Origin: Crossiella cryophila
GTDB lineage: Bacteria; Actinomycetota; Actinomycetes; Mycobacteriales; Pseudonocardiaceae
DNA: 64,000 nt
Assembly: GCF_014204915.1 (NCBI RefSeq)
Contig: NZ_JACHMH010000001.1
Span: forward strand, 4,241,501-4,305,500
Reading direction: 5' to 3'
Shown: one piece after another, positions 8,346 through 43,784 of the stretch
Layout: the number at the start of each line of letters is the position of its first letter
Numbering within the stretch: the first letter of the stretch is position 1
Notes under the pieces: generated by a model
The model's input: only the letters and a program-made list of their open reading frames with translations
Told to the model about the DNA's origin: nothing
Database searches by the model: none
Program-made: the position numbers and the translations under genes

Positions 8346-8498
8346 TCCCGCAACGGCCAACACGCGGTACGACAACGGCCAACACGCGGTACAAGAACGG
8401 CCAACACACCGGCGAGGGTTTCAACCCTCCGCGCGTGTTGGCCGTTCTTGTACGCCATGTTGGCGGTTCTTGTACGCCACGTTGGCCGTTGTGGGACG
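8346..8498. repeat. Head-to-head 22-bp repeat element, copy A
   Basis: Three units in one direction with the core GGCCAACAC at 8355, 8377 and 8399 (exactly 22 bp apart) are followed by three inverted units with the core GTGTTGGCC at 8435, 8457 and 8479 (again 22 bp apart; the last two carry one or two changes). The centre, 8414-8429, is a small hairpin GAGGGTT-tc-AACCCTC. The inverted unit reads about GTGTTGGCCGTTCTTGTAC. The two arms can fold into one long imperfect hairpin. Related elements occur at 9070-9201 and 43685-43784. Confidence 0.85.
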
Positions 8499-8503
8499 CC
8501 GGG

Positions 8504-8602
8504 CGGGCGAAGCCCGGAGCGGTGGGCGCCGGGGGCAGGCGGGCGAAGCCCGGGAACGCCGCAGCCAGGCGTTTCCCACGAGCCGCGACCGGGCGAAGCC
8601 CG
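8504..8602. repeat. Three copies of a 13-bp palindrome
   Basis: CGGGCGAAGCCCG occurs at 8504-8516, 8540-8552 and 8590-8602. Each copy is a 5-bp stem with a 3-nt loop. The spacing is irregular (36 and 50 bp). Possibly REP-like elements or degenerate terminators; the function is unknown. Confidence 0.7.
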
Positions 8603-8643
8603 GAGAACCAGCAGGCGGGGTGGCTTTTCAAACCTAACCCGAG

Positions 8644-8794
8644 CGGTTCCCCATCCCCGTCAGCCTGGAGAGGACACACCGCATCCCGATGAGCGGCCCC
8701 GCAACACAAACCGCCGCCGAACCAACCCCAACGCGACTGGGCCGCTCATCGGGATGTGGTTTGGTATCGGAAGGCTGACGGGGATGGGGAACCG
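8644..8794. repeat. Nested long inverted repeat
   Basis: The outer arms are 23 bp and perfectly complementary (8644-8666 with 8772-8794). The inner arms are 18 bp and perfectly complementary (8682-8699 with 8739-8756), separated from the outer arms by unpaired 15-nt segments and enclosing a 39-nt loop. The 151-bp unit could extrude as a cruciform or fold as RNA. It does not resemble an intrinsic terminator and encodes nothing. It could be a MITE-like remnant, but no flanking target duplication is evident. Confidence 0.8.
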
Positions 8795-9069
8795 TACGAG
8801 CACTGCTCTGTGCCTTTGATCTTCTCCCCCCATCCTTTGATTTCTGCCCGTCCGGCGAGGACGCTCTTGATCTTGACCCTCGCCCCTGACTTTGATCTTG
8901 CCCCAAAAATCAGAACTGAAGAGCAACAAACACGCCCGCACCCACGCCCCCCCCCGGACAACCACGGCAAGCCCAAGCACAAGATCCACCCCGAACAGCC
9001 CGCACCGCGAAGCAGCCCACCGCAACCAGCCCCACCCCAACGCCAGCCCCAGAACCCGCCCACCACAAC

Positions 9070-9201
9070 GGCAAACACCCCGTCCCAGTCGGGCAAACAC
9101 CCCGTCCCACAACGGCAAACACTCCGGCAGGTTCGACACCTCGCCGGAGTGTTATCCCGAACCTGCCGGAGTGTTCGCCCGAACGGGACCCCACATTGGC
9201 C
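9070..9201. repeat. Head-to-head 22-bp repeat element, copy B (divergent core)
   Basis: Same architecture as copy A: forward cores GGCAAACAC at 9070, 9092 and 9114, then inverted cores at 9149 (GTGTTATCC), 9171 (GTGTTCGCC) and 9193 (ACATTGGCC), all at a 22-bp period. The core differs from copy A by one or two bases, so the period and the arrangement are better conserved than the sequence. It lies 12 bp beyond the stop of the gene on the minus strand. Confidence 0.8.
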
Positions 9202-9213
9202 GTTGTGGCGGAG

Positions 9214-9987
9214 TTAGTGGCGACCAGCCTGATTGGCGAGCTGACGAACAGCCTCGCCGACCGCCGCGCAACGAGCCGAGCGAACCGCGTCCGAGAGCGG
9301 CTTCAGCGCCGCAGTCCGGGCGCGGGCAGCCGAAGCGGAAACCGCGCCACCATCCGGATCACTCATCGCCGCCCGCACAATCGCGGCCACCTCCGCCGCC
9401 CGCTCCAACACCCGCAACGCACGCCCAGGCATGCCGGGCGGCCACGGGGTGCGCGGGCGGGCCCGCAAGGCGGCGTCGATCTCGGTGCGCACACCCGGGC
9501 GATGCCGGGCCACGTCCAGGGAGACCAGGGTCGCCGCGGCCGCGCGGACCGCCTCCGCCATGCCGTGTTCGGCCTCACCAATGCCGACGTACTCCAAAAC
9601 CGGGGGAGTGGCCAGGGCGAACACCGACCACCGCACCACACCCTCGGCGACCTCCTCCGGCACCAGCCCCACCGCCGCCGAGGGCAGCACCACGGCCTCC
9701 CCAGCCCGCAACGCGGCCACCCCGAACGGCCCCGGCCCGCCAAGTCCACGCACATCACCCGGCGCGGGCAGCACCAGCGCGCCGGCGCTCGCCCCGGACC
9801 GGCGCAGGCAGGCCAGCAGCAGGGCGGGCCCGACCGGGCGGTCGCCGGGCAACGGCAGGTCGAACCGTTCGGCGGCGTGTTCGTCTCCCGCACTGACCTC
9901 CTGGAGTTCACCCCACGCCAGCAGGGCGTCGAGCACGTCATCGGAGGCCGCGGAACCGTTCAGCCACGCGGAGGTCCAGACCGCCAT
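9214..9987 (-). CDS. Conserved actinobacterial protein of unknown function
   Basis: A 257-residue Ala-rich soluble protein. It has no signal peptide and no clear membrane segment. It opens MAVWTSAWLNGSAASDDVLDAL and has a long C-terminal helical part (ERAAEVAAIVRAAMSD onward). I do not recognise an assigned domain, although the opening looks like a family of uncharacterised proteins of Pseudonocardiales. The ATG at 9987 is preferred over a GTG eight codons upstream because of that opening; no convincing ribosome site is seen for either. Codon use has strong third-position GC, supporting coding. The repeat element B lies just beyond its stop. Confidence 0.65.
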   Translation of the reverse strand: MAVWTSAWLNGSAASDDVLDALLAWGELQEVSAGDEHAAERFDLPLPGDRPVGPALLLACLRRSGASAGALVLPAPGDVRGLGGPGPFGVAALRAGEAVVLPSAAVGLVPEEVAEGVVRWSVFALATPPVLEYVGIGEAEHGMAEAVRAAAATLVSLDVARHRPGVRTEIDAALRARPRTPWPPGMPGRALRVLERAAEVAAIVRAAMSDPDGGAVSASAARARTAALKPLSDAVRSARCAAVGEAVRQLANQAGRH

Positions 9988-10952
9988 GGTCGCGGAGGCA
10001 CAAGGCACCACAAAAGGTTACTAGGCCGCGGCCCAGCGGGTCGCCGCCCCGCGCACCCACCACCTGGGGGCCTGACACCTGGGGGGCCTGCCCGGCCACC
10101 AGCGGCTCATCCGGTCATTCGCCTGCCCCGGCTCGCCTGCCACCCGTCCCGATTCGCGACATGCCGCCCAGGCCGCCCCGCGCTCCGGCCGCTTCGAGCG
10201 CCCCGCGCTGGCCTGCCGCGCTCCGCCCGCGCACCCCGCGCCGACACGCGCACCCCGGGCCTCCCCGCGCACGCCCGGCCGTCGCGACCCGCGCCGCCCA
10301 CGGTCCTGCCCTCGCCACCTGGCTCCGGCCCGGCAAGCCCCGGCCCCAGCCCGACTCCGGCCACCCAGCTCGCGTCACCCAGCTCGGGCCCCCGGATCGC
10401 GCGCCCGGCTAGACCAGCCACGGGCAGCCCCGGTCAGCGCCGTGCTGAGCCACGCCATCCCGGCCCAGCCCGGCCAGCGCCGTCCCGACCCGGCCCGGAC
10501 GCTCCGACTCACGTCATCCCGGCCCGCGTCTTCCCCGCCCCGCCCGCCGCTTCCTCTGCGGAACGCTTTTCGAGCCGAAAAGGTTGCCTTCAGCCCCCGA
10601 CCAACTCGCCAACCGCAGGTCACCGGCCCGCAACAGCCTAAACCGGCGCAGACCCCCGGTCCGCGACAGCCCCATCCCGCGCGGGTTGGCGGCTCATGCC
10701 CAACCCGCCCACCAGAGGCCGCCGATCCACCGGACGTCGAGCCGTACCAGTCTCATCCACCGCGGGACGCCAGCTTGAACCAGCCTCTTCCGCTATGTAC
10801 CAGCCTCTTCCACTGCCGGTCACCAACCCCAGCCTCCTCCGCCGCAGATCACCCGCCCAAGCCGGGCCCGCCCACCGCAGGTCACCGACCCAAACCAGGC
10901 CCATCCACCGGAGGTCGCCAGACCCCTGCATGCCCGGACTACCCTGTCGCCC
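9988..10952 (+). other. 965-bp C-rich intergenic region without a gene
   Basis: No frame shows coding character on either strand. The top strand is C-rich with low-complexity stretches. Between about 10780 and 10925 there are degenerate tandem units: ACCAGCCTCTTCC-like blocks, then CCACCGCAGGTCACC-like blocks about 30 bp apart. A -10-like box for the next gene lies at its right end. Confidence 0.65.
10940..10945 (+). promoter_or_regulatory. -10 box of a probable leaderless promoter (DUF3097 gene)
   Basis: TACCCT ends 7 nt before the GTG at 10953, and there is no Shine-Dalgarno sequence. This is the spacing of TANNNT boxes in leaderless actinobacterial transcripts. Confidence 0.45.
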
Positions 10953-11774
10953 GTGCGCCCCTCCCCAGGTGATCCCTACGGACGTGACGTGCTCGCCGCC
11001 GGCCCCAAGCGCCGTGCCGTCCCCGAAATCCCCGCCGAGCCCGACCTCGTCGTCGAGGACCCGGCCAGTGGTTTCTGCGGTGCCGTTCTCCGCGTCGAGG
11101 GCGCCAATGTCGTGCTTGAGGACCGGCATGGGCGGCAGCGACTCTTCCCGCTCCGGCCCGCCGCGTTCCTCCTCGATGGGCAGCCGGTCACGCTGGTCAA
11201 GCCTGTCGCGGTCCCCGTCAAACCCACCGCCTCGGCCTCCGGGTCGGTTCGGGTCGAGGGGGTGCGGGCGAAAACCGCTGCTGCCAGCCGGATCTGGGTT
11301 GAGGGGATTCACGACGCCGAGCTGGTGGAGCGGGTTTGGGGGCATGATCTTCGGGTGGAGGGGGTGGTGGTCGAGCCTCTGGACGGGATTGACGCGTTGG
11401 CTGAGCGGGTTGCGGGGTTCGGGCCGGGGGCGCGGTGGCGGTTGGGGGTGTTGGTGGATCACCTTGTGGTGGGGAGCAAGGAGTCTCGGATTGTGGCGGG
11501 GGTGGTTCACCCGGATGTGCTTGTGACGGGTCACCCGTACGTGGATATCTGGCAGGCGGTCAAGCCTGCTTCGGTGGGGATCCGGGAGTGGCCGGTGGTG
11601 CCCCTGGGACAGGATTGGAAGACGGGGGTGTGTGCTGAGCTGGGGTGGGGGGAACCTGCTGCGGGGTGGCGGCGGGTGCTTTCCGGGGTTCGGGGGTTCC
11701 GGGACCTGGAGACGCCGTTGGTGGGGGCGGTGGAACGGTTGATTGACTTCGTCACTGTGGGTTCGCGGGAGTGA
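10953..11774 (+). CDS. DUF3097 family protein
   Basis: A 273-residue cytosolic protein of a family widespread in actinobacteria and without known function. The family core IWVEGIHDAELVERVWGHDL followed by RVEGVVVEPLDG (residues about 110-147) is present; it recalls a Toprim-like fold with its E and D-x-D-type acidic residues, but that is inference. The N-terminus lacks membrane segments. The start is GTG 10953, with a -10-like TACCCT 7 nt upstream and no ribosome site. It stands alone, with a 99-bp gap before nfeD. Confidence 0.82.
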   Translation: MRPSPGDPYGRDVLAAGPKRRAVPEIPAEPDLVVEDPASGFCGAVLRVEGANVVLEDRHGRQRLFPLRPAAFLLDGQPVTLVKPVAVPVKPTASASGSVRVEGVRAKTAAASRIWVEGIHDAELVERVWGHDLRVEGVVVEPLDGIDALAERVAGFGPGARWRLGVLVDHLVVGSKESRIVAGVVHPDVLVTGHPYVDIWQAVKPASVGIREWPVVPLGQDWKTGVCAELGWGEPAAGWRRVLSGVRGFRDLETPLVGAVERLIDFVTVGSRE

Positions 11775-11873
11775 TCCCGGATCGGGTGATCGCTGTCGCC
11801 TGGTAGATCACACGTCGGTCACGGCGGCTGGTCACGGTCGGCAACGGGTCGCGCACTCTGCCACGATGGCGAC

Positions 11874-12302
11874 ATGGCCGCCCTGGTCTGGCTGGTAGCC
11901 GGAGTCCTGCTTCTGGCAGCGGAAGTGCTTTCTGGTGACTTCGTGCTGCTCATGATCGGCGTCGCGGCACTGGCCGCGGCCGGATCCGCGGCCGCGATCG
12001 ACATCTTGTGGGTCGACGTCGCCGTGTTCGCGGTCAGTTCGATCGTGCTGCTCGCGGCCGTTCGGCCCGCGCTGCGCAGGCGGATGCTGGCCGGGGACCA
12101 TGTGAAAACCAACGTGGAAGCGCTGGTCGGCGGCAAGGCAGTAGTACTGTCCACTGTGGACGCTCACGGTGGTCAGGTGAAACTCGGTGGTGAGATCTGG
12201 TCGGCCCGCGCCTACGACGAGACGCAGGTGATCGAGGTCGGACGGGCCGTCACCGTCATGGATATCGCTGGAGCGACCGCGGTCGTGTGGGCGGAAGGCT
12301 GA
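11874..12302 (+). CDS. NfeD-like membrane protein
   Basis: A 142-residue protein with two or three N-terminal membrane helices (residues about 5-65, containing LLLAAEVLSGDFVLLMIGVAALAAA). A small C-terminal beta-barrel (OB-like) domain follows (VGGKAVVLSTVDAHGGQVKLGGEIWSA). This is the short NfeD architecture lacking the ClpP-like protease domain. NfeD proteins are nearly always next to an SPFH/stomatin gene, as here (4 nt gap), and are thought to organise membrane microdomains with it. Confidence 0.85.
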   Translation: MAALVWLVAGVLLLAAEVLSGDFVLLMIGVAALAAAGSAAAIDILWVDVAVFAVSSIVLLAAVRPALRRRMLAGDHVKTNVEALVGGKAVVLSTVDAHGGQVKLGGEIWSARAYDETQVIEVGRAVTVMDIAGATAVVWAEG

Positions 12303-12306
12303 GGCG

Positions 12307-14771
<2,465 letters not shown>

Positions 14772-14844
14772 CCGCGTCCGACTGGGCCACCTGGTCGCAA
14801 CCGTTGCGCTGAACGGGGTCAAGCCCGCGCGGGAGTGCTCACCC

Positions 14845-15897
14845 GTGCGGTTTCATCTCCTCGTGGCGGGCCGGGCAGGGGACGAGTTCCACGATGTGGC
14901 TGCGTTGCGCAGCACCCTCCACGGCTCGCTGTCCCCGCCAGGGCACCAGGACGACACCGCGCACTGGCAACGGTTGCACCAGGTGGTCCAGTCCCTGCAC
15001 GACCTCGTCTCCGACGGCCGCGCCCAGGAGGCCGTGCAGTTCGCCGAACAGGTCGTCGAGGTCCTGGCCGGGGCCGCGCACCAGGTCACCGGGCAGTGGG
15101 ACGAACTCGCCGACCTGGCCCAGCGGGCACTGGCCGCGCACGCCATCGCCTGCCGCCTGGTCCGCCCGGACCCCTACCGACTGGCCGGTTGGCTGATCCG
15201 GCTGCAGCTGACCCACCCGGACGGCCCCGAGGTGCGGCTCACCGAGTACACCGACGCCCTTGGCACCGCCGGACTCGCCTACTACCGCCAGGGCGCCGAG
15301 GCCGCCTGCCGCGGGCTGCCCACCGTCCGGTTCGGCCAGACCGGCCGCTACGACCGGCACCGCTGGGCCGTCTCCCGCCTGGTGCACGAACTCGCCGACC
15401 ACACCGGCGATCCCGACCTCACCGTGCAGATCCTGGCCACCGACCTGTCCACCGCCTGGCAGTACCTGCGGATCGCCTCCGAACTCGAGGACGCCGGCCG
15501 CAGCGAGGCCGCCCTGGCCTGGGTGGAACGCGGCCTGGTGGCGGCCAAGGGCACCGGCGCGGTGCCCAGGCTGGTCGACCTCGCGGTGGACCAGTGCGTG
15601 CGACTGGGCAGGCTGGACCGCGCGGTCGAACTGCGCCGCACCGCCTTCCGTGCCCGCCCCGGCCTGGACGCCTTCCTGCGGCTGCGCGCGGTCGCCGACC
15701 ACGCCAAGTCCTGGGACCGGGAACGCCAGCGGGTGCTGCGCTGGCTGCGCCAGCCCGGCGAGGACGACCAGCGGCGCAACACCGTGCTGGTGGAGATCCT
15801 GCTCTGGGAGGGCGACCGGGACGCCGCCCGCCGCGCCGCCGCCGAGCGCGGCTGCGACCCGGAGATCCTTGTTCGACTGGACCGGGTCGAGGACTAG
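14845..15897 (+). CDS. Helical-repeat protein resembling the C-terminal half of SWIM zinc-finger proteins
   Basis: A 350-residue, all-helical cytosolic protein. Blocks such as DLSTAWQYLRIASELEDAG and EAALAWVERGLV (residues about 200-235) and RLDRAVELRRTAFRARP (about 255) look like the repeat region (DUF6880-like) found downstream of the SWIM finger in actinobacterial SWIM proteins. No SWIM motif (CxCx..CxH) is present here, nor in the 70 bp upstream. It is therefore either a stand-alone version or a family I do not recognise. The start is GTG 14845. No function can be assigned; the similarity is from memory of the family and is inferred. Confidence 0.65.
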   Translation: MRFHLLVAGRAGDEFHDVAALRSTLHGSLSPPGHQDDTAHWQRLHQVVQSLHDLVSDGRAQEAVQFAEQVVEVLAGAAHQVTGQWDELADLAQRALAAHAIACRLVRPDPYRLAGWLIRLQLTHPDGPEVRLTEYTDALGTAGLAYYRQGAEAACRGLPTVRFGQTGRYDRHRWAVSRLVHELADHTGDPDLTVQILATDLSTAWQYLRIASELEDAGRSEAALAWVERGLVAAKGTGAVPRLVDLAVDQCVRLGRLDRAVELRRTAFRARPGLDAFLRLRAVADHAKSWDRERQRVLRWLRQPGEDDQRRNTVLVEILLWEGDRDAARRAAAERGCDPEILVRLDRVED

Positions 15898-15911
15898 ACA
15901 GGCTTCTTAGG

Positions 15912-16340
15912 ATGTCCGGCATGCCGCCGCCACCGCTGTCCCGTCGCACGGTCCTGTGTGGACTGCTCGCCCTGGCCGGAACCGCCGCCGCCTGCGGTAA
16001 CGGCAAACCGCCGCGCACCGGCGGCACCGGCACCGCCAAGCCCGGCGCCGAACTGGCCAGGCTCTCCGCGCTGCCGGCCACCGGCGGCGCGCTGGTGGAG
16101 ACCGAGGGCAACGGCATCCTGCTGATCGTGCGCACCAAGGACGGCGCGGTGCGCGCCTTCGACCCGCGCTGCCCGCACCGGGGCAACCTGGTCAGCCCGC
16201 CGGTCGGCGGCGTGATCGACTGTCCGACCCACGGCAGCCTCTTCGACGGCGAGACCGGCGAGGTGAGCAAGGGGCCCGCCAAGACCGGGCTCGTCCAGAT
16301 CCCGGTCAAGGTCGACGGGGAGCGGATAGTCCTGATCTAG
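15912..16340 (+). CDS. Rieske 2Fe-2S lipoprotein with Tat-type signal
   Basis: A 142-residue protein. The N-terminus has the twin-arginine motif SRRTVLCGLL and a lipobox ending TAAAC, so it is probably exported folded by Tat and lipidated. The Rieske cluster ligands are complete: C-x-H in RCPHRG (near residue 98) and C-x2-H in DCPTHGS (near 116). It lacks the oxygenase alpha-subunit domain and the membrane anchor of the bc1 Rieske protein, so it is a small electron-transfer protein of unknown partner. Starts at 15912 or 15921 are both possible. It precedes uvrC by 45 bp. Confidence 0.87.
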   Translation: MSGMPPPPLSRRTVLCGLLALAGTAAACGNGKPPRTGGTGTAKPGAELARLSALPATGGALVETEGNGILLIVRTKDGAVRAFDPRCPHRGNLVSPPVGGVIDCPTHGSLFDGETGEVSKGPAKTGLVQIPVKVDGERIVLI

Positions 16341-16373
16341 CCGACCAGGCGATCCGGTGTCGGTGTGTCGCCG

Positions 16374-16379
16374 TAGTCT
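16374..16379 (+). promoter_or_regulatory. -10 box of a probable leaderless uvrC promoter
   Basis: TAGTCT ends 6 nt before GTG 16386; no ribosome site precedes the start. Confidence 0.45.
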
Positions 16380-16385
16380 TACGGC

Positions 16386-33702: not shown

Positions 33703-33709
33703 TCCCGTC

Positions 33710-35232: not shown

Positions 35233-35703
35233 ATGCGCTCGGACCTGACTCACCCGCCCAGCGCCGCCCGGCGCGCGCTCCGGCTCCGGCTCAAGCCGCG
35301 GGAGTCGGCGGTGGGCCTGCTCGACGGCGGCTGGTGGCCGCACACCGGCTGCCTCGGCGTGGAGCTGCCGCCGTTGCTGGAACTGCTCGCGGTGCGGCTG
35401 GGGCCGATCGGGCGGGTGGTGTTCAACCCGGAGGCGTTCGGACCCGCGCCGCGACGGGTGCTCGCCGGCGGCTGGCCGGTGGTGCTGCGCCGCTCGGCGG
35501 CCCTGGACCCGGCGATGGTGCTGGTGCTGGGCCGGGCCGGGGGTGGGTTGCGGTTGCTGGTGGTGCCGCCGGGGGTGGCCGAGGAGACCGGGCGGCGGGT
35601 GCTGCAGCGGGCGGCCGGGCGGGAGAACATCGACAGTCCGGCGGAGTTGCTGGCGCCACGGGCCTGGTTGCGGCTGGTGGTGCCGCGACAGCGGCAGGGC
35701 TGA
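35233..35703 (+). CDS. DUF5994 family protein
   Basis: A 156-residue soluble protein with the family opening LRLKPRESAVGLLDGGWWPH and ELPPLLELLAVRLGPIGRVV. This group of actinobacterial proteins has no known function and is often multicopy. A TAGGGT box near 35126 may be its promoter. It converges on pgl with 33 bp between the stops. Confidence 0.72.
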   Translation: MRSDLTHPPSAARRALRLRLKPRESAVGLLDGGWWPHTGCLGVELPPLLELLAVRLGPIGRVVFNPEAFGPAPRRVLAGGWPVVLRRSAALDPAMVLVLGRAGGGLRLLVVPPGVAEETGRRVLQRAAGRENIDSPAELLAPRAWLRLVVPRQRQG

Positions 35704-35736
35704 GCGGACCGGGACGACGCCGGGCGCGGGCCGGGG

Positions 35737-36510
35737 TCAGGCCTTCGGGGGCAGGAAGCTGGCCGGGACCTGGGCGGCGGCGGTCGTGTCCAGCAGCCAC
35801 CGGGTGCCCTCGGCGCCGCGGGCCCCGGCCGCCGGGATCGCCACCTCGTCGCCCTCGACCAGCGCCTGCGCGACCGGACCGGCCTTGCTCTCGCCGGTGG
35901 TCATCAGCCACACCTCGCGTGCGGTGCGGATCGCGGGCAGGGTCAGGCTGACCCTGGTGGGTGGGGGCTTGGGGCAGTCGCGGACCGCGACCACGGTGCG
36001 GCTGGCCTCGTGCACGGCGGGGGAGTCCGGGAAGATCGAGGCGGTGTGGCCTTCCTCGCCGACGCCGAGCAGGCACACGTCGAAGACCGGCACCGAGCCG
36101 TAGGCCACCGCGTTCCTGGCCAGGATCTCGGCGTAGGCCTCGGCGGCGGCGTCCGGGTTGTCGCCGAAGCGGCCGTCGCTGGGTTCCATCGCGTGCACCC
36201 GGGCCGGATCAAGCGGGATGTGGTCCAGCAGGGCGGTCCTGGCCTGGGTCTCGTTGCGGTCGGGGTGACCGGCGGGCAGGAAGCGTTCGTCGCCCCAGTA
36301 CAGGTCGACCCGGCTCCAGTCGACGGCGTCGCGGGCCGGCAGGTCGCGCACGTGTTCCAGGACCGCGTTGCCGGTGCGGCCGCCGGTGAGCACCAGGCTG
36401 GCGGTGCCGGTTGTGGCCTGGGCGTCGACCAGGGCGGTGACCAGTCGGGCGGCGACCGCCGCGGCGAGCAGGTCCGGACTGGCGTGCACGACTACCCGCG
36501 GCTGGCTCAT
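35737..36510 (-). CDS. pgl: 6-phosphogluconolactonase
   Basis: A 257-residue enzyme hydrolysing 6-phosphogluconolactone, the second step of the oxidative pentose phosphate pathway. Family blocks are VLTGGRTGNAVLEHV, VDLYWGDERFLPAGHPDRNE (residues about 66-85) and VCLLGVGEEGHTASIFPDSP (near 145). In most actinobacteria pgl directly follows opcA; here opcA is about 17 kb away (54.5-55.7 kb) on the other strand, so pgl has its own promoter. It diverges from the asparaginase-like gene. Confidence 0.94.
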   Translation of the reverse strand: MSQPRVVVHASPDLLAAAVAARLVTALVDAQATTGTASLVLTGGRTGNAVLEHVRDLPARDAVDWSRVDLYWGDERFLPAGHPDRNETQARTALLDHIPLDPARVHAMEPSDGRFGDNPDAAAEAYAEILARNAVAYGSVPVFDVCLLGVGEEGHTASIFPDSPAVHEASRTVVAVRDCPKPPPTRVSLTLPAIRTAREVWLMTTGESKAGPVAQALVEGDEVAIPAAGARGAEGTRWLLDTTAAAQVPASFLPPKA

Positions 36511-36596
36511 GGTCAGACATTCTGGCCTATCGGCCGGTGCCGCCGCGGGCCCGCTCGCCCTAGGCAGGGAACACAGCCTTGAGGAGGGATCCCGCC

Positions 36597-37667
36597 ATGC
36601 GAGGACGAACCATCGTGTCGCTGACCGCCGCCGCCCTGCTGCTGGTCGGCCCGCAGAGCAGCGCCCTGCCCGAACCGCCGGCGCCCGAACCCGCGGCGGA
36701 GCAGGGGCGCGGACCGGCCCCGGACGCGCGGAACGTGGTGCTGGCCGTGCACGGCGGCGCGGGCGGCGGCCTGGTCCGCGAGAACACCACCCCCGAGGTG
36801 GAACGCGCCTACCGGGACGGCCTCACCGCTGCCTTGCGGGCGGGGGAGAAGGTGTTGCGGGACAAGGGGAACAGTGTGGACGCGGTCGAGGCCGCGGTGA
36901 AGGTGCTCGAGGACGACCCGTTGTTCAACGCGGGCAAGGGCGCGGTGTTCACCGAGGACGCCGGGCATGAGCTGGACGCCTCGATCATGCGTGGGCGGGA
37001 CCTGGCCGCCGGGGCGGTCGCCGGGGTGCGCAACGTGCGCAACCCGATCTCCGCGGCCCGCCTGGTGATGGAGAAGTCCAAGCACGTGCTGCTCGCTGGG
37101 GAGGGCGCGGACGATTTCGCCGCCCGCAACGGCCTGCCCACGGTCACCCAGGACCACTACTGGACCCAGGCCCGCTGGGACCAGTTGATGAAGGCCAAGA
37201 ACCCGGCCACCAGGGACCTGGCCGACCCGCAGGCCCACGGCACGGTCGGCGCGGTCGCCCTGGACCGGGCCCGCGACCTGGCCGCGGCCACCTCCACCGG
37301 CGGGCTGACCAACAAGATGACCGGCCGGATCGGCGACTCGCCGGTGATCGGCGCGGGCACCTACGCGCGCAACGACACCGCCGCGGTCAGCGCCACCGGC
37401 GCCGGTGAGGTGTTCATCAGGGGCGCGGCCGCGGGCACCATCTCGAACCTGGTCGAGTTCGGGCGGCGGTCACTGGCCGAGGCCACCTTCGAGGTGGTGG
37501 TGCGGCGGCTGCCCGCGCTCGGCGGCGCCGGCGGCGTGATCGCGCTCAACCGGGCAGGCGAGTTCGACGCGCCGCACAGCACCCCCGGCATGCTGCACGG
37601 ATACCTGACCGCGGATGGCCGGGTCGTCACCAAGGTGTTCCTGGACGAGACCCCGGCCAACCGCTGA
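36597..37667 (+). CDS. Secreted isoaspartyl peptidase/L-asparaginase (Ntn hydrolase)
   Basis: A 356-residue plant-type asparaginase precursor. ATG 36597 follows GAGGAGGG. The N-terminus is a signal peptide (SLTAAALLLVGPQSSA) and a Pro/Glu linker. The alpha-subunit starts LAVHGGAGGG, with DPLFNAGKGAVFT. Autocleavage is expected before the Thr of HGTVGAVALD (near residue 222), which becomes the nucleophile of the beta-subunit; STGGLTNKMTGRIGDSP and GAGTYARN are substrate-contact blocks. An exported member is less common than cytosolic ones. It ends 11 bp from the FKBP stop on the other strand. Confidence 0.9.
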   Translation: MRGRTIVSLTAAALLLVGPQSSALPEPPAPEPAAEQGRGPAPDARNVVLAVHGGAGGGLVRENTTPEVERAYRDGLTAALRAGEKVLRDKGNSVDAVEAAVKVLEDDPLFNAGKGAVFTEDAGHELDASIMRGRDLAAGAVAGVRNVRNPISAARLVMEKSKHVLLAGEGADDFAARNGLPTVTQDHYWTQARWDQLMKAKNPATRDLADPQAHGTVGAVALDRARDLAAATSTGGLTNKMTGRIGDSPVIGAGTYARNDTAAVSATGAGEVFIRGAAAGTISNLVEFGRRSLAEATFEVVVRRLPALGGAGGVIALNRAGEFDAPHSTPGMLHGYLTADGRVVTKVFLDETPANR

Positions 37668-37678
37668 GTCAGGCTCGA

Positions 37679-38302
37679 TCAGGAACCGGCGCCCGGAGTG
37701 ATCTTGACCAGGTCGACCACGAAGATCAGGGTCTCGTTCGGCGCGATGTCGCCCTTGCCCGCCGCGCCGTAACCCAGCTCGGCCGGGACGACGAGCAGCC
37801 GGCGGGAGCCCGCCTTCTGGCCGATCAGGCCCTGGTCCCAGCCCTTGACGACCTGGCCGACACCGATGGGCGCGGTGAAGGTCTTGCCGCCGTCGTAGGA
37901 GGACTGCTTGAAGGCGCGGTCGGAGAAGGTGGTCAGGTGGTAGTGCGCCTCGACCGTCTCACCGGACTTCAGCCCGGCGCCGGTGCCAGGGGTGATGTCC
38001 TTGGACAGCAGGGTGGTGGGCGCCGAGCAGTCGGTCGGCACGGTCACCGTGGGCTTGGCGTTGGCCGCGCCCTCGACCTTGAAGGCGTCGATGGTGCAGG
38101 GCGCGCCCGCGGGCTTGCCCGCGGCGCTGGTGGCCGCGGAGCTGCTCGCCGCGGCCGCGGACGGGGTCGTGTTGGCCTTGGCCAGCTCTTCCAGTCCGGC
38201 AGGCGCCTCGCTGGGGGTGCAGCCGGCGACCAGCAGGCCGAGCGCGGTCACCGCGCCCGCGGCCAGCAGGCGGGCCCGGGAGATCGTCAGAGAAAGGGAC
38301 AC
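37679..38302 (-). CDS. FKBP-type peptidyl-prolyl isomerase lipoprotein
   Basis: A 207-residue protein: a lipoprotein signal (LGLLVAGC), a Ser/Ala-rich linker, a short N-terminal domain with two cysteines, then a single FKBP domain from about residue 105. Its motifs are GETVEAHYHLTTFSD, VGQVVKGWDQGLIGQKAGSRR and the C-terminal LIFVVDLVKI. The aromatic pocket residues YxxTTF-type, W and F are retained. It helps fold exported proteins at the outer face. It lies 42 bp behind the redoxin gene on the same strand. Confidence 0.9.
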   Translation of the reverse strand: MSLSLTISRARLLAAGAVTALGLLVAGCTPSEAPAGLEELAKANTTPSAAAASSSAATSAAGKPAGAPCTIDAFKVEGAANAKPTVTVPTDCSAPTTLLSKDITPGTGAGLKSGETVEAHYHLTTFSDRAFKQSSYDGGKTFTAPIGVGQVVKGWDQGLIGQKAGSRRLLVVPAELGYGAAGKGDIAPNETLIFVVDLVKITPGAGS

Positions 38303-38344
38303 AGCGGGAAGCCTAGACGGCCCGGTGTGTGGTCCGCCCTCTGC

Positions 38345-38893
38345 TCAGCCGACTAACTGCCGCAGCGCGTCCCCGACGGCGTTCGCCGAGGTCAGTCCCT
38401 TGATCAGGACGCCGCCGGGGGCCACCACGGCCAGCAGCGGCGGTTCGGCCAGCGCGTAGCCACGGCCGATCGTCTGCTGCTGGTCGTCCAGCCCGACCGG
38501 ATAGGGCACCTGGTGTTTGTCCAGGTAGCCGCGCAGATCGGCCTCGGTGTCCCTGGCGGCCACGCCGAGGAAGACCACCTTGTCCTGGTAGGTGGTGGCC
38601 AGCTCGGTGAGCTTGGCCTGTTCGCTGCCGCACTTGGCACACCACGAACTGAAGAACACCACCACCAGGGGCCGGTCTTTCCACAGCGCCGAGGCGGTGA
38701 CCTTGGCGCCGTCGGTGAGCGGCACGGTGAAGTCCGGCGCGGCCGCGGCCTCCGGGGGCGGCGGGCGGAAGGTGACCCCGGAAGGCAGTGGCCCCGGCAG
38801 CGCCGCGGATCCGCCGCGTACCGGGGCGGGCGGGGGAGCGGCGGTGCAGGCGGCCAGGAGCAGGGCGAGCAGCAGGGCCAGGGTGGTTCTCAC
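38345..38893 (-). CDS. TlpA/ResA-like thioredoxin-fold lipoprotein
   Basis: A 182-residue protein with a lipoprotein signal (LALLLALLLAAC). A redoxin domain follows: APDFTVPLTDGAKVTASALW, VVVFFSSWCAKCGSEQAKL with the CxxC pair, and the cis-Pro region AEPPLLAVVAPGG. It probably reduces or exchanges disulphides outside the membrane. GTG 38893 overlaps the TGA of the upstream lipoprotein gene, so translation is coupled. Confidence 0.88.
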   Translation of the reverse strand: MRTTLALLLALLLAACTAAPPPAPVRGGSAALPGPLPSGVTFRPPPPEAAAAPDFTVPLTDGAKVTASALWKDRPLVVVFFSSWCAKCGSEQAKLTELATTYQDKVVFLGVAARDTEADLRGYLDKHQVPYPVGLDDQQQTIGRGYALAEPPLLAVVAPGGVLIKGLTSANAVGDALRQLVG

Positions 38894-39312
38894 GTCGTCA
38901 ATCCCACCAGGGGCGCCTGCTCGCCCAGGTTCGGGTCGCGGGCCAGTTCGATCGGCGGCAGGTCGCCGACGTGCAGCCGGTAGCCGGTCGCGGCCGGGAC
39001 GGCCACGGTGAACTCCAGCTGGCAGAAGGTGGGTTCGCGCGGGACCTTCAGCGGTTCGTCGATGGCCTTGACCGCCTTGCCCGGCGGCAGTTTCCCGTCG
39101 GCGAGCTGCTTGCCCTCGGCGTCGGTGAGCCGGAACCCGGCGTTGGGGTGGATGGCCTGGTAGGCGCCGGTGCCCGAGCAGTCGCCGCCGACCTCGCGCA
39201 TGGCCCCGTCGCGGACCAGGAGTTTCACCGGCAGCGGACTGGCGGCGGGGGCATTGCTGCACCCCGCCGCCAGCGTCGCGCTGATGAGCAGGATCAGGAC
39301 AGGACGGTGCAC
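38890..39312 (-). CDS. Small lipoprotein, unknown function
   Basis: A 140-residue protein with lipobox ATLAAGC after MHRPVLILLIS. The mature part (VKLLVRDGAMREVGGDCSGT onward) is beta-rich with cysteines at SGTG and TFCQLEF that could form a disulphide. The family is not recognised. It overlaps the protease gene by 19 nt upstream and the redoxin gene by 4 nt downstream, so it is certainly part of that translational unit. Confidence 0.75.
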   Translation of the reverse strand: MHRPVLILLISATLAAGCSNAPAASPLPVKLLVRDGAMREVGGDCSGTGAYQAIHPNAGFRLTDAEGKQLADGKLPPGKAVKAIDEPLKVPREPTFCQLEFTVAVPAATGYRLHVGDLPPIELARDPNLGEQAPLVGLTT

Positions 39313-41297
39313 GTCGCCGTCGCGGTCTTGCTCGGGTCGGTCTCGGACACCGCGGTCAGCTTCACCGTGGCGGCCTCGATCGCCTGCGCGGTGGTGCGTT
39401 CCACGTTCACCGCCACGTCGACCTTCTCGCCGAACTTGGCCGTCGCGAGGGAGTTGGGCAGCTGGACCTGCCAGCCCGCGCCGCTGACCTCGGCCTTGAG
39501 CCGGTAGACGTCCGAACGCAGGTGCGCGGCCGGGTTGCCACTGGCCTTGCCGGTGTTGGTCAGCGGGAAGGAGCAGGCGGTGGCGCCGCGGCGGCCGACC
39601 CAGCCGGTGCGCGCGTTGGCCAGGGACACCCCTCGGGTGTGCGCGCCCGCGCCGTCCAGGGAGCGGACCGCGACGGTGTAGGAGAGCACGCCCCTGGTGT
39701 CCCGCTTGATGTCGAGGACGTAGAAGTGCAGCCGGTTGTGGGTGTCGGTGTACTCATAGATCGACTTGGACCCGTTGCCGGCCTTGAGCAGCGCGTCGGC
39801 CAGCTGGCGCGGATCGCCGATGGTCACCTTCACCGGGGTGCCGTCCGGCTTGTAGTAGTCGACCAGGTTGATGTCCTGCGGGTTGGCGTCGACAACCCAC
39901 TTGAACGGGGCGGCGTCGGCGTTCTTCGTCTTGGCCAGCAGCACGCCGCTGTCCGGGGTGAAGGAGTCCGACCCCATCCGGTCCACGACCTCCAGGGTGT
40001 AGTTCTGGTAGCCGCGGCCGTCGCAGAGCGGATCACGGGCCTGGCTGCACGCCGGGGCCTTGTCCCCGCCGGGCATGACCACGTTGATCCCGGCCAGTCC
40101 GGTGGGACCGGGCTGCACCGAGCGGGCGGTCACCGTGGCCACCGCCACCCCGGAGGTGGTCAGCGTGCCCCGGTCCAGCCGCAGCACGTTCGCCTCGTCC
40201 ACGATGCCGAGCTTCATCTTGTTGCGCAGCATGTGCTGCGCGCCCATGGACGCCCCGGCCATCGGCGGGATGAACCAGCGGGTGTGCGTGCCGCCCGGAC
40301 CGTTGAAGGTGCCGCGGCTGAGCATGTCCCACGGGCCGCTGTAGGCGCGCACCGGCGGGTTGCCGAAGGGGTTGTTGTAGTTGTCCCCGATGCCCAGGAT
40401 GTGGCTGAACTCGTGCGCGTACACGCTCTGCCCGGAGCTTTCCGCCTGGGTGGAGGAGCCGCCGCCGGCGTTGGGCCAGATGGAGGCCGCGGCCTTCCAC
40501 GAGGTCCACTCCACGTAACGGGTCTTGGCCCAGTTCGGCAGGTTGGGGTCGGGCGGACCGAAGGAGTCCGGCACGTCCTCCTTCTTCTCGAACATCATCG
40601 GCCCGAACTCCTGCCAGGTCCCGGACTCGTCCTGACCGGCGGAGAGGAAGAAGACGAAGTCGAAGCCCTTGGGCACCTCGGTGCCGACGTCCTTGCGCCA
40701 GGCCGCGCCCGCGTCGGTGCGCAGGTCCTTGTTGCAGCTGGACCCGGCCGGGCAGGCGCCCGAGCCCTGGAACTCCATCGCGTACTCGTAGGACTTGCCG
40801 GGCAGCCGGTACGCGCCGAAGGCCTTGAGGTCGACGCCGAACCGCCCGCCGGAGTCCTCCATCCAGTACTCGTTGATGGTGTGCCCGTTGTTGACCTTGC
40901 CGGGCTTGTTGAGGAAGTCCTGGTAGAACTGCGCCACCTGGGCCCGCGGGATGTTGTTGGCCAGGTTGGTGGGGTTGCCGAACACGGTGGATTTCGGCGG
41001 CTGGGTGACCGCGAACTCCTGGTCCGGGTAGTCGACGAGGACGAGAGCGCCCTTGAACATCCGCTTGGTCGGCTTGACCGCCGGGTTCGCCCAGTCGGTG
41101 CCCGGCGGCTTCTTGTAGTCCGACCACGTCATGTCAGCGGGGTTCTCCCACTGCTGCGGGTCGATCGGCGCGAGGGAGGCCGGCGCGCCCCAGTCCGCCG
41201 GTGCGGCGCTGGCCATGCCCGCCATGGACACCGACAGCGCGGCGGCCAGCGCGAGGGCCCCGGTGCGCGAGACCCGGAAACGGCGACGTAGCTGCAT
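39294..41297 (-). CDS. Secreted M6-like zinc metalloprotease
   Basis: A 667-residue exported protease. A Sec signal (SRTGALALAAALSVSMAGM, cleavage after SAA) precedes a propeptide-like part and a catalytic domain with the zinc motif HEFSH in SVYAHEFSHILGIGDNYNN (near residue 297). The downstream block PWDMLSRGTFNGPGGTH (Met-turn region) matches immune inhibitor A-type (M6) enzymes. The C-terminal 150 residues are beta-rich (CARDB-like strands). It heads a coupled run of exported proteins including a redoxin and an FKBP. Confidence 0.85.
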   Translation of the reverse strand: MQLRRRFRVSRTGALALAAALSVSMAGMASAAPADWGAPASLAPIDPQQWENPADMTWSDYKKPPGTDWANPAVKPTKRMFKGALVLVDYPDQEFAVTQPPKSTVFGNPTNLANNIPRAQVAQFYQDFLNKPGKVNNGHTINEYWMEDSGGRFGVDLKAFGAYRLPGKSYEYAMEFQGSGACPAGSSCNKDLRTDAGAAWRKDVGTEVPKGFDFVFFLSAGQDESGTWQEFGPMMFEKKEDVPDSFGPPDPNLPNWAKTRYVEWTSWKAAASIWPNAGGGSSTQAESSGQSVYAHEFSHILGIGDNYNNPFGNPPVRAYSGPWDMLSRGTFNGPGGTHTRWFIPPMAGASMGAQHMLRNKMKLGIVDEANVLRLDRGTLTTSGVAVATVTARSVQPGPTGLAGINVVMPGGDKAPACSQARDPLCDGRGYQNYTLEVVDRMGSDSFTPDSGVLLAKTKNADAAPFKWVVDANPQDINLVDYYKPDGTPVKVTIGDPRQLADALLKAGNGSKSIYEYTDTHNRLHFYVLDIKRDTRGVLSYTVAVRSLDGAGAHTRGVSLANARTGWVGRRGATACSFPLTNTGKASGNPAAHLRSDVYRLKAEVSGAGWQVQLPNSLATAKFGEKVDVAVNVERTTAQAIEAATVKLTAVSETDPSKTATATCTVLS

Positions 41298-41373
41298 GAC
41301 CTGGGATCCTAGGAACCCTGGGCGGTGCTACCCAGCCGCCGAAGGTACTGATCCACCCGGTCGAGTCAAGCAG

Positions 41374-41397
41374 GCGACCCCGCCCGTGGAGGGTCGC
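41374..41397 (-). terminator. Possible hairpin after the EF-hand gene
   Basis: A 7-bp perfect stem (41374-41380 with 41391-41397) and 10-nt loop in the 135-bp gap between the EF-hand gene and the protease gene. No T-run; weak. Confidence 0.35.
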
Positions 41398-41432
41398 GCT
41401 CCAGGGCAGGGTCGTCTCCGCGCCGCGCGCGG

Positions 41433-41981
41433 TCAGCCGAGCAGTCCGGCCCCGGGGGCAGCGGAGTCGGAAGTGGTGAACAGTTCCTGCAAGGCTGCCC
41501 GGAACTCGGCGTAGTCGATGACACCGTCGCCGTTCTGATCGATTCGCTCGAACGCCGTGGCCGCGATCTCGGCGCTCACCTCCGCCGAGAGGTACAGGGC
41601 GATGTACTCGTCCCGGCTGATCTCGCCGTCGCCATTGCGGTCGAGCGCCTCGAACACCGTTTCCGCGAGCTTGGCATATGCCTCGTCGAGGTATTCCGGA
41701 TTACCCGCCAGCCCCGCCTCGGTGGCGGTGATGAACTCCTCCCTGCTGACCTGGCCGTCCCCGTCGGCGTCGGCGTCCCGTTCGATCTGGGCCCACCAGC
41801 CGAGGAACGAGGTCGTGATGTCCTGCCTGCGGTGTTCCTCCGCGTCGGGCACGAGCTGGGCGACCACCCCCTCGGCCAGCGCGGTGAAATCCGCGGCGGA
41901 GATGATCCCGTCCTTGGTGACGTCGAGCGCGTCGAAAATCTTGCCGAGGTTGGCGTCCTGAATTGTTGGATCACTCGCCAC
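41433..41981 (-). CDS. Four-EF-hand calcium-binding protein, calerythrin-like
   Basis: A 182-residue acidic protein without a signal peptide. Four EF-hand loops are visible: DVTKDGIISAAD (residues about 19-30), DADGDGQVSREE, DRNGDGEISRDE and DQNGDGVIDYAE. Loops 2-4 have canonical D-x-D/N-x-D-G spacing; the first is slightly degenerate (Thr at position 3, Asp at 12). The layout and the LLG terminus recall calerythrin of Saccharopolyspora, a sarcoplasmic-type calcium buffer. GTG 41981 follows GGGAGG by 6 nt. Role: intracellular calcium buffering or signalling, inferred. Confidence 0.87.
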   Translation of the reverse strand: MASDPTIQDANLGKIFDALDVTKDGIISAADFTALAEGVVAQLVPDAEEHRRQDITTSFLGWWAQIERDADADGDGQVSREEFITATEAGLAGNPEYLDEAYAKLAETVFEALDRNGDGEISRDEYIALYLSAEVSAEIAATAFERIDQNGDGVIDYAEFRAALQELFTTSDSAAPGAGLLG

Positions 41982-42104
41982 GATGTGCCTCCCGGTAGCG
42001 GACCACTTCGGAGTAAACCGCTTCCGAATACCGGCACACCAGGGTGATTCACGAGTGCACACATTCGGCCGAATGGCGGCGGAGAATCTAGACAAATCGG
42101 CGGG

Positions 42105-43559
42105 TCAGCTGCCCGGTTTCCAGTCCGGGTGGCCCGGCATCGGCGGCGTGGTCGGGCTGTGCAGCCAGTCGCGCAGCACCCCGGCGATCTCCGGGCCTGC
42201 GGTCTCGGTGACCACCCGCTCGAAGTCCGCGGTACTGGCGGTTCTGTCCCGGTGCCGGTCCAGGAAGGCCTGCAGGATCCGCTGGAAGGTCTGTTCGCCC
42301 GCGGCCTGGCGCAGTGCGTAGACCACCAGCGCGCCGCCCGCCCTGGCCAGTCCGAAGATCCCCTTGGGCTCGTTGGAGACCACGATGGAACCGAGTGCGG
42401 TCCTGGCCTCCTGGTCGGCGCCGTAGATCCGGCGCAGGCTGTCCGGCACGGAGGTGCCGCCGTGCTCCTGCTCCCACAGCTGGCCGAAGTAGGTGGCGAA
42501 GCCCTCGCTGAGCCACACGTCCTCGTAGGAGCGGAAGGAGATCGAGTTGCCGAACCACTGGTGCGCGGCCTCGTGCACCATGACCGGTTCGGTCTGTTCC
42601 AGCTCGGTGAGCGACCTGGTCAGGAAGGTGGACAGGGTCGCGGTCTCCAGGGCGTCGGTGTGCATGGGCCGGTTGCCGTCCAGGCCGAGCACGCCGTAGG
42701 TCTCCAGGGGGAACGGGCGGCCGATGCGCTGTTCCAGCCAGGCCAGGTGCCCGCTGATCCGGTCCAGCGCCGGTCGCACCTGTTCCACCTTGCCGGTGGT
42801 GACCGCGCTGCGCAGTGGCAGCCCGTGCGGGCCGGTGCCGGTGACCAGGTCGAATTTGCCGACGGCGAGCTGGGCGACCTGGCTGGTGATCGGGTGCACG
42901 GTGCGGTGGGTGACCACGGTCCGGCCGCCCGCGGTGCGCTCGCCGGTGCGGATGCCGTTGGCCAGCACGGTCCAGCCCTCGGGCGCGTCCACCCGGTAGG
43001 TGAACCGGGCCTTGTCCGAGGGGTGGTCGTTGACCGGGAAGAACATGTGCGCCCGGTCCGGCTGGGACCACAGCGCGAATCCGCCGTCGGCGAGCTTGCT
43101 CCAGCCCGCGGTCTCATCCACCGGCGAGGGCACCTTGGCGGCGCGGTCGGCGGTGTACTCGACCTCGACCGCGAAGCCCCGGCCCGCGCGCACCGGCCGG
43201 GCCGGGGTGATCACCAGCTCCTCGCCCTCGAGGCGGAACTCGGCGCGACGCCCGTCCACCCGCACCTTGTGCACCACGCCCCCGGCGAAGTCCAGGTTGA
43301 ACCGCGACAGGTTCTGGGTGGCCCTGGCGGTCATCGTGGTGCGCCCGGCCATGGTGGTCACGCCCGGCTCGAACCGGAAGTCCACTGTGTACTCCTCGGC
43401 GTCGTAACCACCGTTGCCCAGTCCCGGCAGCAGCCGGTCCCCGACGCCGGGGGAGCCGGGGGTGAAGGTGGGCGCGGCTGAGGCCGGTGCGATGCCGATC
43501 GTCAGCGCCGAGGCGGTGACGAGCAGCAGCGCGGCGGCCCGGCGGGAACTGCCAGACAT
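42105..43559 (-). CDS. Secreted M1-family zinc metallopeptidase
   Basis: A 484-residue aminopeptidase N-like enzyme without the C-terminal ERAP domain. A Sec signal (AAALLLVTASALTIGIAPAS) is followed by the M1 N-terminal beta domain (YDAEEYTVDFRFEP). The catalytic HEAAHQWFGNSISF (HExxH near residue 327) and the third ligand Glu in WLSEGFATYFGQLWE come next. The usual GxMEN exopeptidase motif is replaced by NRPMHTDALE, so substrate N-terminus recognition may differ. GAAAGG precedes ATG 43559. The 22-bp repeat element lies upstream. Confidence 0.9.
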   Translation of the reverse strand: MSGSSRRAAALLLVTASALTIGIAPASAAPTFTPGSPGVGDRLLPGLGNGGYDAEEYTVDFRFEPGVTTMAGRTTMTARATQNLSRFNLDFAGGVVHKVRVDGRRAEFRLEGEELVITPARPVRAGRGFAVEVEYTADRAAKVPSPVDETAGWSKLADGGFALWSQPDRAHMFFPVNDHPSDKARFTYRVDAPEGWTVLANGIRTGERTAGGRTVVTHRTVHPITSQVAQLAVGKFDLVTGTGPHGLPLRSAVTTGKVEQVRPALDRISGHLAWLEQRIGRPFPLETYGVLGLDGNRPMHTDALETATLSTFLTRSLTELEQTEPVMVHEAAHQWFGNSISFRSYEDVWLSEGFATYFGQLWEQEHGGTSVPDSLRRIYGADQEARTALGSIVVSNEPKGIFGLARAGGALVVYALRQAAGEQTFQRILQAFLDRHRDRTASTADFERVVTETAGPEIAGVLRDWLHSPTTPPMPGHPDWKPGS

Positions 43560-43684
43560 CAGGAACCCTTTCCTACGGCGAACTTGGCGTGTCCAGCCTG
43601 TTCGCCGCGGCCGCCCCCCACCTCGCCCGTTCGGCCAGCAAGATCAGCCGTTCGGCCAAGGCCCCGCGGTCAATGCCGCGCGGC

Positions 43685-43784
43685 GTGTTGGCCGTTGTCG
43701 TACGCAGTGTTGGCCGAACTGGTACGCCATCCGGCCAACACACCGTCCACAACGGCCAACACACCGTACGAGAACGGCCAACAC
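43685..43784. repeat. Head-to-head 22-bp repeat element, copy C
   Basis: Two units with core GTGTTGGCC at 43685 and 43707 (22 bp apart) face three inverted units with core GGCCAACAC at 43733, 43754 and 43776 (21-22 bp apart). The unit sequence, including flanking GTAC, matches copy A at 8346-8498, 35 kb away. It lies directly after the stop of the ribosome-protection gene and upstream of the M1 peptidase gene, so it could end the former transcript. Confidence 0.83.

What the first reader, a model, noticed from the sequence alone, without database searches (positions are those of the whole stretch)
8346..43784. Family of head-to-head 22-bp-period intergenic repeat elements at three loci
Elements at 8346-8498, 9070-9201 and 43685-43784 share one architecture: two or three units in one direction, then three in the other, at an almost exact 22-bp period (cores at 8355/8377/8399 then 8435/8457/8479; 9070/9092/9114 then 9149/9171/9193; 43685/43707 then 43733/43754/43776). 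In copy B the core has drifted (GGCAAACAC instead of GGCCAACAC) while period and layout are kept, which suggests the spacing (two helical turns) or the folded hairpin is what matters. All sit in intergenic DNA near gene ends. It resembles a REP/BIME-like system but with a unit I do not recognise.
Basis: seen in the sequence. Interest (0 to 1): 0.75.

Follow-up and report, generated by a model that had tools for sequence, protein, structure and literature searches.

The report
Paired 22-bp repeat arrays after genes
In this Crossiella bacterium hundreds of short DNA arrays, built from one 22-letter unit, sit just behind the ends of genes and are missing around the replication start gene, and a sister species has a different unit at many of the same places; they behave like a known class of bacterial repeat but without its usual mover.

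Summary
The arrays lie where stated and keep a 22-bp period; two of the three flank one 909-bp intergenic mosaic. The genome (genus Crossiella, 10.06 Mb) holds 912 units at ≤2 mismatches, 3 in a reversed-pattern control. In sampled blocks 0 of 64 arrays lie in genes; occupied junctions are 24/174 convergent, 13/574 co-directional, 2/174 divergent, median 18 bp from the stop codon. Paired arms do not covary, while a neighbouring hairpin element does: sequence-specific recognition at two-turn spacing is favoured over a selected hairpin.

High counts occur in this genus only (3-743 units in five genomes at ≤1 mismatch). Sister species S99.2 has a second unit with the same period (565 copies), at 7 of 9 orthologous junctions where this genome has the first. 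No exact unit is listed in a ~1.34-Mb zone around dnaA.

No RAYT and, in this genome, no Mu/Tn7-type transposase was found. Best reading: a REP/BIME-like, probably mobile or copied repeat whose unit is a protein-binding site; protein, mover and any termination role are inferred. New variant of a known kind.

The parts
8342..8407 (-). Array A, minus arm: three 22-bp units (8342, 8364, 8386), heads pointing right
8408..8434 (.). 27-bp imperfect palindrome between the two facing heads of A (CACCGGCGAGGGTTTCAACCCTCCGCGC region)
8435..8500 (+). Array A, plus arm: three 22-bp units (8435, 8457, 8479)
8504..8619 (+). Three GGGCGAAGCCCG-type repeats after the tail of A; recurring module of the composite
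8644..8794 (+). H1 hairpin of the double-hairpin element (56-nt arms, 86% complementary); the spacer motif CTGCCCGTCCGGCGAGGACG follows within about 8840-8880
9057..9122 (-). Array B, minus arm: three units, core drifted to GGCAAACAC
9149..9211 (+). Array B, plus arm: three degenerate units in 22-bp register (9149, 9171, 9193)
43685..43728 (+). Array C, plus arm: two units (43685, 43707), head outward
43733..43784 (-). Array C, minus arm: three cores (43733 truncated, 43754, 43776), ending 13 bp from the stop of the right-hand gene
7222..8304 (+). Ferrochelatase gene left of A
   Evidence: Pfam PF00762, E 2.1e-85
9214..10011 (-). Convergent reading frame right of B, no Pfam match
43798..45753 (-). 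EF-G-like GTPase gene whose 3' end adjoins C

Best explanation
A Crossiella family of REP/BIME-like dispersed intergenic repeats. The working part is a ~20-bp sequence-specific recognition site, GTGTTGGCCGTT[C/G]T[N]GTACG, repeated mostly 2-4 times at 22 bp so that successive sites face the same side of the helix, and set as inverted pairs. Shown: copy number, period, layout, 3'-end location, restriction to the genus among the genomes searched, species differences, a second unit at the same junctions in a sister species, no arm covariation, void around dnaA. Inferred: a DNA-binding protein occupies the array; the DNA is copied or moved in trans by an unidentified enzyme (a transposase with repeated ~22-bp end sites is the nearest mechanical analogue); copies persist at gene ends, where they do no harm or help to separate converging transcription units.
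For: 912 units at up to 2 mismatches, control 3. Steps: 88 of 94 are 22 bp and 6 are 43-44 bp among units at up to 2 mismatches, without any choice by spacing; in the larger set, where weak units were admitted only at 21-23 bp, 255 of 278 are 22. Positions 13, 15 and 20-22 vary while 1-10, 14 and 16 hardly do, also in the second units. Arms not matched at the free positions: ranks 1-3 (n 41, 37, 24) .429/.508/.508 against permuted .457/.492/.537; the same test on nine varying pairs of the H1 hairpin gives .993 against .639, 0 of 2000. 39 loci: conv 24/174, co 13/574, div 2/174, median 18 bp to the stop codon (61 distances), 36 of 39 with both orientations. Counts at up to 1 mismatch in the five Crossiella genomes 743, 239, 195, 28, 3; 1-2 matches in 11 of 292 other genomes of the family. 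Junctions of 5-7 bp in G086 are 65-97 bp with arrays in G055 and 185-909 bp here. Second unit: 565 in G108, at 7 of the 9 junctions with first units here against 4 of the other 182 (6 of the 7 at up to 2 mismatches).
Against: No autonomous copy: the 28 genes between neighbouring arrays less than 9 kb apart look ordinary by eye. No transposase candidate from PF01797 or PF09299 in this genome that fits. No clear target-site duplication at the filled/empty pairs read by eye. A change of unit at the same junction and the void around dnaA do not follow from simple transposition. Units of one array are slightly more alike than permuted units (z 2.3, 4.4, 1.9), so local growth by duplication also plays a part. 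No binding protein was identified. The conservation of the first unit is partly built in, because an array had to hold one unit with up to 2 mismatches.
Confidence: 0.5

Rival explanations
1. Host-useful binding arrays: a Crossiella DNA-binding factor (architectural, insulator or termination factor) uses the arrays at converging gene ends over most of the chromosome, and selection keeps the junctions marked while the site sequence drifts or switches together with the factor.
For: Same junctions occupied by different units in sister species (7 of 9 vs 4 of 182); strict two-turn period; convergent bias; void around dnaA: gap over dnaA of 1.37 Mb in 0 of 200000 uniform draws of the 56 listed loci; 0 of 50 convergent junctions in the 0.7-1.0-Mb block vs 24 of 174 elsewhere (p 0.003) and vs 8 of 33 orthologous ones (p 0.0004).
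Against: Counts of 3 to 743 in related genomes and 565 second units in one species only are fast for a needed system; most convergent junctions are empty (150 of 174).
Confidence: 0.25
2. RNA hairpin terminators: the inverted pairs are transcribed and fold into long stems that end transcription from both sides or protect 3' ends.
For: Strong predicted folds, z -12.4 (A), -9.4 (B), -6.9 (C) with 0 of 200 shuffles as good; location after stop codons and between convergent genes.
Against: Arms do not covary; no excess of T-tract terminators in 8000-9500 (2 found, 1.9 expected; both found sites lie inside array A); sequence is constrained beyond pairing.
Confidence: 0.12
3. Non-autonomous ends of a Mu/Tn7/IS21-like transposon: the 2-4 sites at each end are transposase sites, and elements are moved by a transposase encoded elsewhere or lost.
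For: Inverted arrays of 22-bp sites with the outer unit best kept and TGT...ACA outward in the +++...--- and ++-- forms; Tn7-like ends carry multiple 22-bp TnsB sites (PMC9371665, passages).
Against: PF09299 absent from this genome (the 14 control genomes gave no hit either, so that search has no positive control); no clear duplication; the common ---+++ form has heads facing inward. IS21-type PF22483 was not searched.
Confidence: 0.1

Closest known systems
REP / BIME / REPIN elements (RAYT-associated)
   Same: Hundreds of copies, intergenic, opposite-orientation pairs, mainly after genes and between co-directional or convergent genes (PMC3733652, passages), mosaic with other repeats, species-specific sequence
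   Different: Unit not itself a palindrome and without GTAG/CGTC tag; same-strand tandem units at 22 bp; no RAYT found; found only in one genus of the family searched; void around dnaA
Tn7/CAST and Mu transposon ends (multiple 22-bp transposase sites)
   Same: Short inverted arrays of 22-bp sites, outer site best conserved
   Different: No Mu_transpos_C protein found in this genome, no clear target duplication, no cargo or autonomous copy seen; the facing-head form does not fit transposon ends
Bidirectional intrinsic terminators
   Same: Long stable inverted repeats between converging genes
   Different: No arm covariation, no T-tract excess, sequence and period constrained
CRISPR arrays
   Same: Regular direct repeats
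   Different: Contiguous 22-bp units without spacers, 1-7 units per run, many loci; cas genes were not searched for

Membership tests
REP/BIME | More than 100 intergenic copies per genome | tested here: met
   912 at up to 2 mismatches; 0 of 64 array midpoints in genes in three blocks
REP/BIME | Units paired in opposite orientation | tested here: met
   36 of 39 loci hold both orientations
REP/BIME | Unit is an imperfect palindrome with a GTAG-type head | tested here: not met
   Four single window units fold at -0.3 to -3.6 kcal/mol; for one of the four only 4 of 200 shuffles do as well, for the others 35, 134 and 190; consensus has GTAC, no GTAG or CGTC
REP/BIME | Cognate RAYT (Y1) gene flanked by the repeats | tested here: not met
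   PF01797 in 2 of 5 genomes; in G000 one hit with an internal stop, beside a frame with HTH_OrfB_IS605; no units of either family in the four Y1 loci
Tn7/Mu-type transposon end | Several ~22-bp sites at inverted ends | tested here: met
Tn7/Mu-type transposon end | TnsB/MuA-type transposase in the genome | tested here: not met
   PF09299 in 1 of 5 genomes (G108), none in G000; no positive control rang; PF22483 not tested
Tn7/Mu-type transposon end | Short target-site duplication | tested here: inconclusive
   A few filled/empty pairs read by eye, none clear
Intrinsic terminator | GC-rich hairpin | tested here: met
   z -12.4, -9.4, -6.9
Intrinsic terminator | T-tract directly after the stem | tested here: not met
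   2 sites vs 1.9 expected in 8000-9500, the only region scanned
Described RNA family (Rfam) | Match at gathering score | tested here: not met
   0 matches in window, L065, L071, L072

The most novel reading that the evidence does not exclude
The arrays are sites of an unknown Crossiella DNA-binding system that marks converging gene ends over most of the chromosome but not in a ~1.3-Mb domain around the origin, and whose site specificity has switched between sister species while the marked junctions stayed the same.
Probability: 0.2. Interest if true: 0.85.

Novelty: new variant of a known kind. Interest (0 to 1): 0.62.

Why it matters
REP/BIME elements are the best-known gene-end repeats, and their spread is tied to RAYT transposases. 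Here a system of similar scale in an actinomycete has another design (tandem two-turn sites in inverted pairs), no detected RAYT, a different unit in a sister species at the same junctions, and a void around dnaA. Five related genomes with 3 to 743 units give a natural comparison in which the mover or the binding protein could be found and the roles of hairpin, spacing and sequence tested apart.

Tried and rejected
RAYT mobiliser: PF01797 in the five genomes; the G000 hit is next to an IS605 OrfB-type frame, no arrays in the loci. Mu/Tn7-type transposase: PF09299, one hit, in G108, no arrays in its locus. Autonomous element: the 28 genes lying between neighbouring arrays less than 9 kb apart read as ordinary genes by eye; no Pfam run on them. 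Known RNA: Rfam, 0 matches in four sources. Phage or plasmid carriage: 0 stretches in viral contigs, no match in plasmids or phages. Selected hairpin: arm covariation negative, positive control on H1. The control has limits: its nine pairs were picked because they vary, the structure came from the same 32 sequences, and the pattern that collected them fixed the outer arms. Strand-specific (Rho-type) signal: dropped because arrays start with either orientation after a stop (listing); not formally tested. Void as a mere accessory-DNA effect: against it, 8 of 33 orthologous convergent junctions in the 3.94-4.61-Mb block carry first units here, 0 of 50 convergent junctions in the 0.7-1.0-Mb block (orthology not required there). 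Literature: searches gave no listed paper on these repeats in Crossiella; listings only, open PMC library only.

Limits. Gene calls come from my own codon-usage caller. dnaA stands in for the origin (inference). Rows are capped: one search lists 100 of 263, up to 4.38 Mb; one search lists 100 of 120, so the void in G055 is seen on one side only; G016 rests on 13 of 28 places. The p value of 1.3e-9 for the void used an interval chosen from the data; the fairer test gave 0 of 200000. The double-hairpin core is also scarce far from dnaA (4 of 65 copies beyond 4 Mb), so avoidance is not of the origin alone for that element. At up to 3 mismatches the second-unit pattern also catches some first units (13 hits in 664 kb here). 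G108 = Crossiella sp. S99.2 is inferred from an equal contig length (427,523).
Full report
OBSERVATION. A and B belong to one 909-bp intergenic region between the ferrochelatase gene (PF00762, 2.1e-85) and a minus-strand frame without a Pfam match; they flank a partial copy of another structured repeat. C lies 13 bp from the 3' end of a minus-strand EF-G-like gene.

GENOME SCALE. The window is 4241501-4305500 of a 10.06-Mb single-contig genome, G000. The unit occurs 466+446 times at up to 2 mismatches, control 0+3. Of 297 genomes of the family, the five of this genus hold 743, 239, 195, 28 and 3 units at up to 1 mismatch; 11 of the other 292 hold one or two. All 25 stretches found in the GTDB contigs come from Crossiella sp. 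S99.2 (the own genome may be left out there), so the genus is Crossiella, family Pseudonocardiaceae. Median protein identity to G000 in the compared blocks: G108 96.6, G055 91.0, G086 90.5, G016 82.7.

POSITION. I called genes with a simple codon-usage caller in four G000 blocks, 1.46 Mb in all. In the three blocks away from dnaA, 0 of 64 array midpoints fall in genes. The arrays form 39 intergenic loci: 24 of 174 convergent, 13 of 574 co-directional and 2 of 174 divergent junctions (convergent vs divergent p 5e-6). The median distance to the adjoining stop codon is 18 bp (61 distances, 42 within 30 bp), against 180 bp to start codons (17 distances); 36 of 39 loci hold both orientations. A lag-22 self-match excess appears in intergenic DNA of G000 and G108 and, more weakly or beside other strong lags (30, 59), in G055 and G016; G086 shows none, and the sampled genes show none.

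ANATOMY. Among units at up to 2 mismatches in 1.16 Mb, same-strand steps up to 70 bp are 22 (88 times), 43 (3) or 44 (3), nothing else. In a larger set of 87 arrays (142 same-strand runs), where weaker units were admitted only at 21-23 bp, steps are 22 in 255, 21 in 22 and 23 in 1 of 278. The first (head) unit is nearly invariant outside positions 13, 15, 17 and 20-22; later units decay, often to GGGAC. The 41 facing heads are separated by 25-29 (27 cases) or 32-37 bp (14) of imperfect palindrome, often with a TTTCAA/TTGAAA tip. Outward tails either end near a stop codon or run into recurring modules (GGGCGAAGCCCG; the double-hairpin element): 26 of 30 double-hairpin loci read have arrays nearby.

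HAIRPIN OR SITE. Each window element can fold strongly as RNA (z -12.4, -9.4, -6.9). If folding were selected, variable positions in the two arms should match. They do not: ranks 1-3 at the free positions .429/.508/.508 against .457/.492/.537 permuted, and whole-unit identity is not above permutation. The same test on nine varying pairs of the H1 hairpin of the neighbouring repeat gives .993 against .639 (0 of 2000); that hairpin has 47 consensus pairs, 99.9% of cells paired and 14 pairs with two-sided change in 32 sequences (the limits of this control are in Tried and rejected). So the arrays look like recognition sites, not like a selected stem. This is indirect; no protein was seen.

EVOLUTION. 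At the ferrochelatase junction G016 and G086 have 7 bp, G055 97 bp with --++, G108 320 bp with units of one direction, and G000 909 bp. At another junction G086 has 5 bp, G055 65 bp and G000 185 bp. The junction proteins of G055 and G086 are 97-99% identical at these two places. Repeated gain, or gain and precise loss, both fit. G108 carries a second unit, AGTTGGSCCAASTNGNNGTAC: 565 copies at up to 2 mismatches (control 8), against 20 in G000 (control 7), 13 in G055 (4), 2 in G016 (11) and 0 in G086 (6). It shares GTTGG, GTAC and the ~22-bp step. Of 191 orthologous adjacent gene pairs, 9 hold first units in G000; at 7 of the 9 G108 holds the second unit (at 3 both), against 4 of the other 182 (up to 3 mismatches; 6 of the 7 at up to 2, while the G000 sides are at 3 or more). 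A head-to-head array of another variant, four then three units, is seen in G016. Period, pairing and site outlast the unit sequence.

VOID AROUND dnaA. dnaA lies at 1152200. No exact unit is listed between 398806 and 1738839 (capped lists). For the pattern, 56 loci lie in the listed 4.38 Mb; a gap over dnaA as long as the observed 1.37 Mb came in 0 of 200000 uniform draws. The 0.7-1.0-Mb block has the usual gene density, 0 units at up to 2 mismatches, and 0 of 50 convergent junctions occupied, against 24 of 174 elsewhere (p 0.003) and 8 of 33 orthologous ones (p 0.0004). In G055, with dnaA at 592, the first exact unit is at 848315 (100 of 120 listed, the other side unknown). In G016 the nearest listed units are 1.2 Mb from dnaA on both sides, 13 of 28 listed. 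The double-hairpin core, whose 65 places are all listed, also avoids dnaA (50 of 200000 draws), but is scarce far from it too: 5, 13, 25, 18 and 4 copies per Mb of distance.

MOVER. Y1 (PF01797) is in two of five genomes; in G000 it is one hit with an internal stop beside a frame with HTH_OrfB_IS605, and no units of either family lie in the loci. Mu_transpos_C is absent from G000 (no control genome rang). The genes between neighbouring arrays look ordinary by eye. Nothing was found in viral contigs, plasmids or phages.

KNOWN KINDS. REPs are described as high-copy, intergenic, paired in opposite orientation and mainly between co-directional and convergent genes (PMC3733652, passages), with a GTAG-type head, a palindrome and a cognate RAYT (PMC2817692, passages). 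The arrays share the first set and lack the second. Multiple 22-bp TnsB sites at Tn7-like ends (PMC9371665, passages) are the nearest mechanical analogue of tandem 22-bp sites. RepRanger (PMC12306157, passages) does not mention Crossiella; the passage seen lists counts for three actinomycetes.

VERDICT. Real, strongly structured, and restricted to one genus among the genomes searched. It works like a REP/BIME system; by the RAYT and palindrome criteria it is not a member. Most likely a copied or mobile protein-site array, tolerated or used at gene ends.

Noticed in passing
window 8644-8880; 65 places in the own genome: A double-hairpin intergenic element: inverted, related ~150-nt hairpins around CTGCCCGTCCGGCGAGGACG. 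The H1 stem is kept by two-sided changes (14 of 47 pairs). The one G055 and one G086 copy read have no arrays, but a G086 copy at C82:236883 lies about 90 bp from two array units. The 265-base query also matches 16 genomes outside the genus among 200 searched, mostly over that motif. No Rfam match.
   Followed up: partly
own genome 0.40-1.74 Mb; G055 0-0.85 Mb: Zones near dnaA without a listed exact unit; the double-hairpin core avoids dnaA too.
   Followed up: partly
L105-L110 and L191-L200 (G108): A second ~22-bp-period unit with near-palindromic core AGTTGGSCCAASTNGNNGTAC, 565 copies in G108.
   Followed up: yes
gene 3' flanks in G000 blocks: By eye, DNA after plus-strand stops is C/A-rich and DNA before minus-strand stops G/T-rich near occupied junctions; not quantified.
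   Followed up: no
intergenic blocks of G055/G086 (lags 14, 20, 21, 43) and G016 (lags 30, 59): Other tandem periods in intergenic DNA of relatives, not examined.
   Followed up: no
window 43798-45753 (-): EF-G-like GTPase of 651 aa beside array C (GTP_EFTU, EFG_III, EFG_IV, EFG_C); its role was not examined.
   Followed up: no
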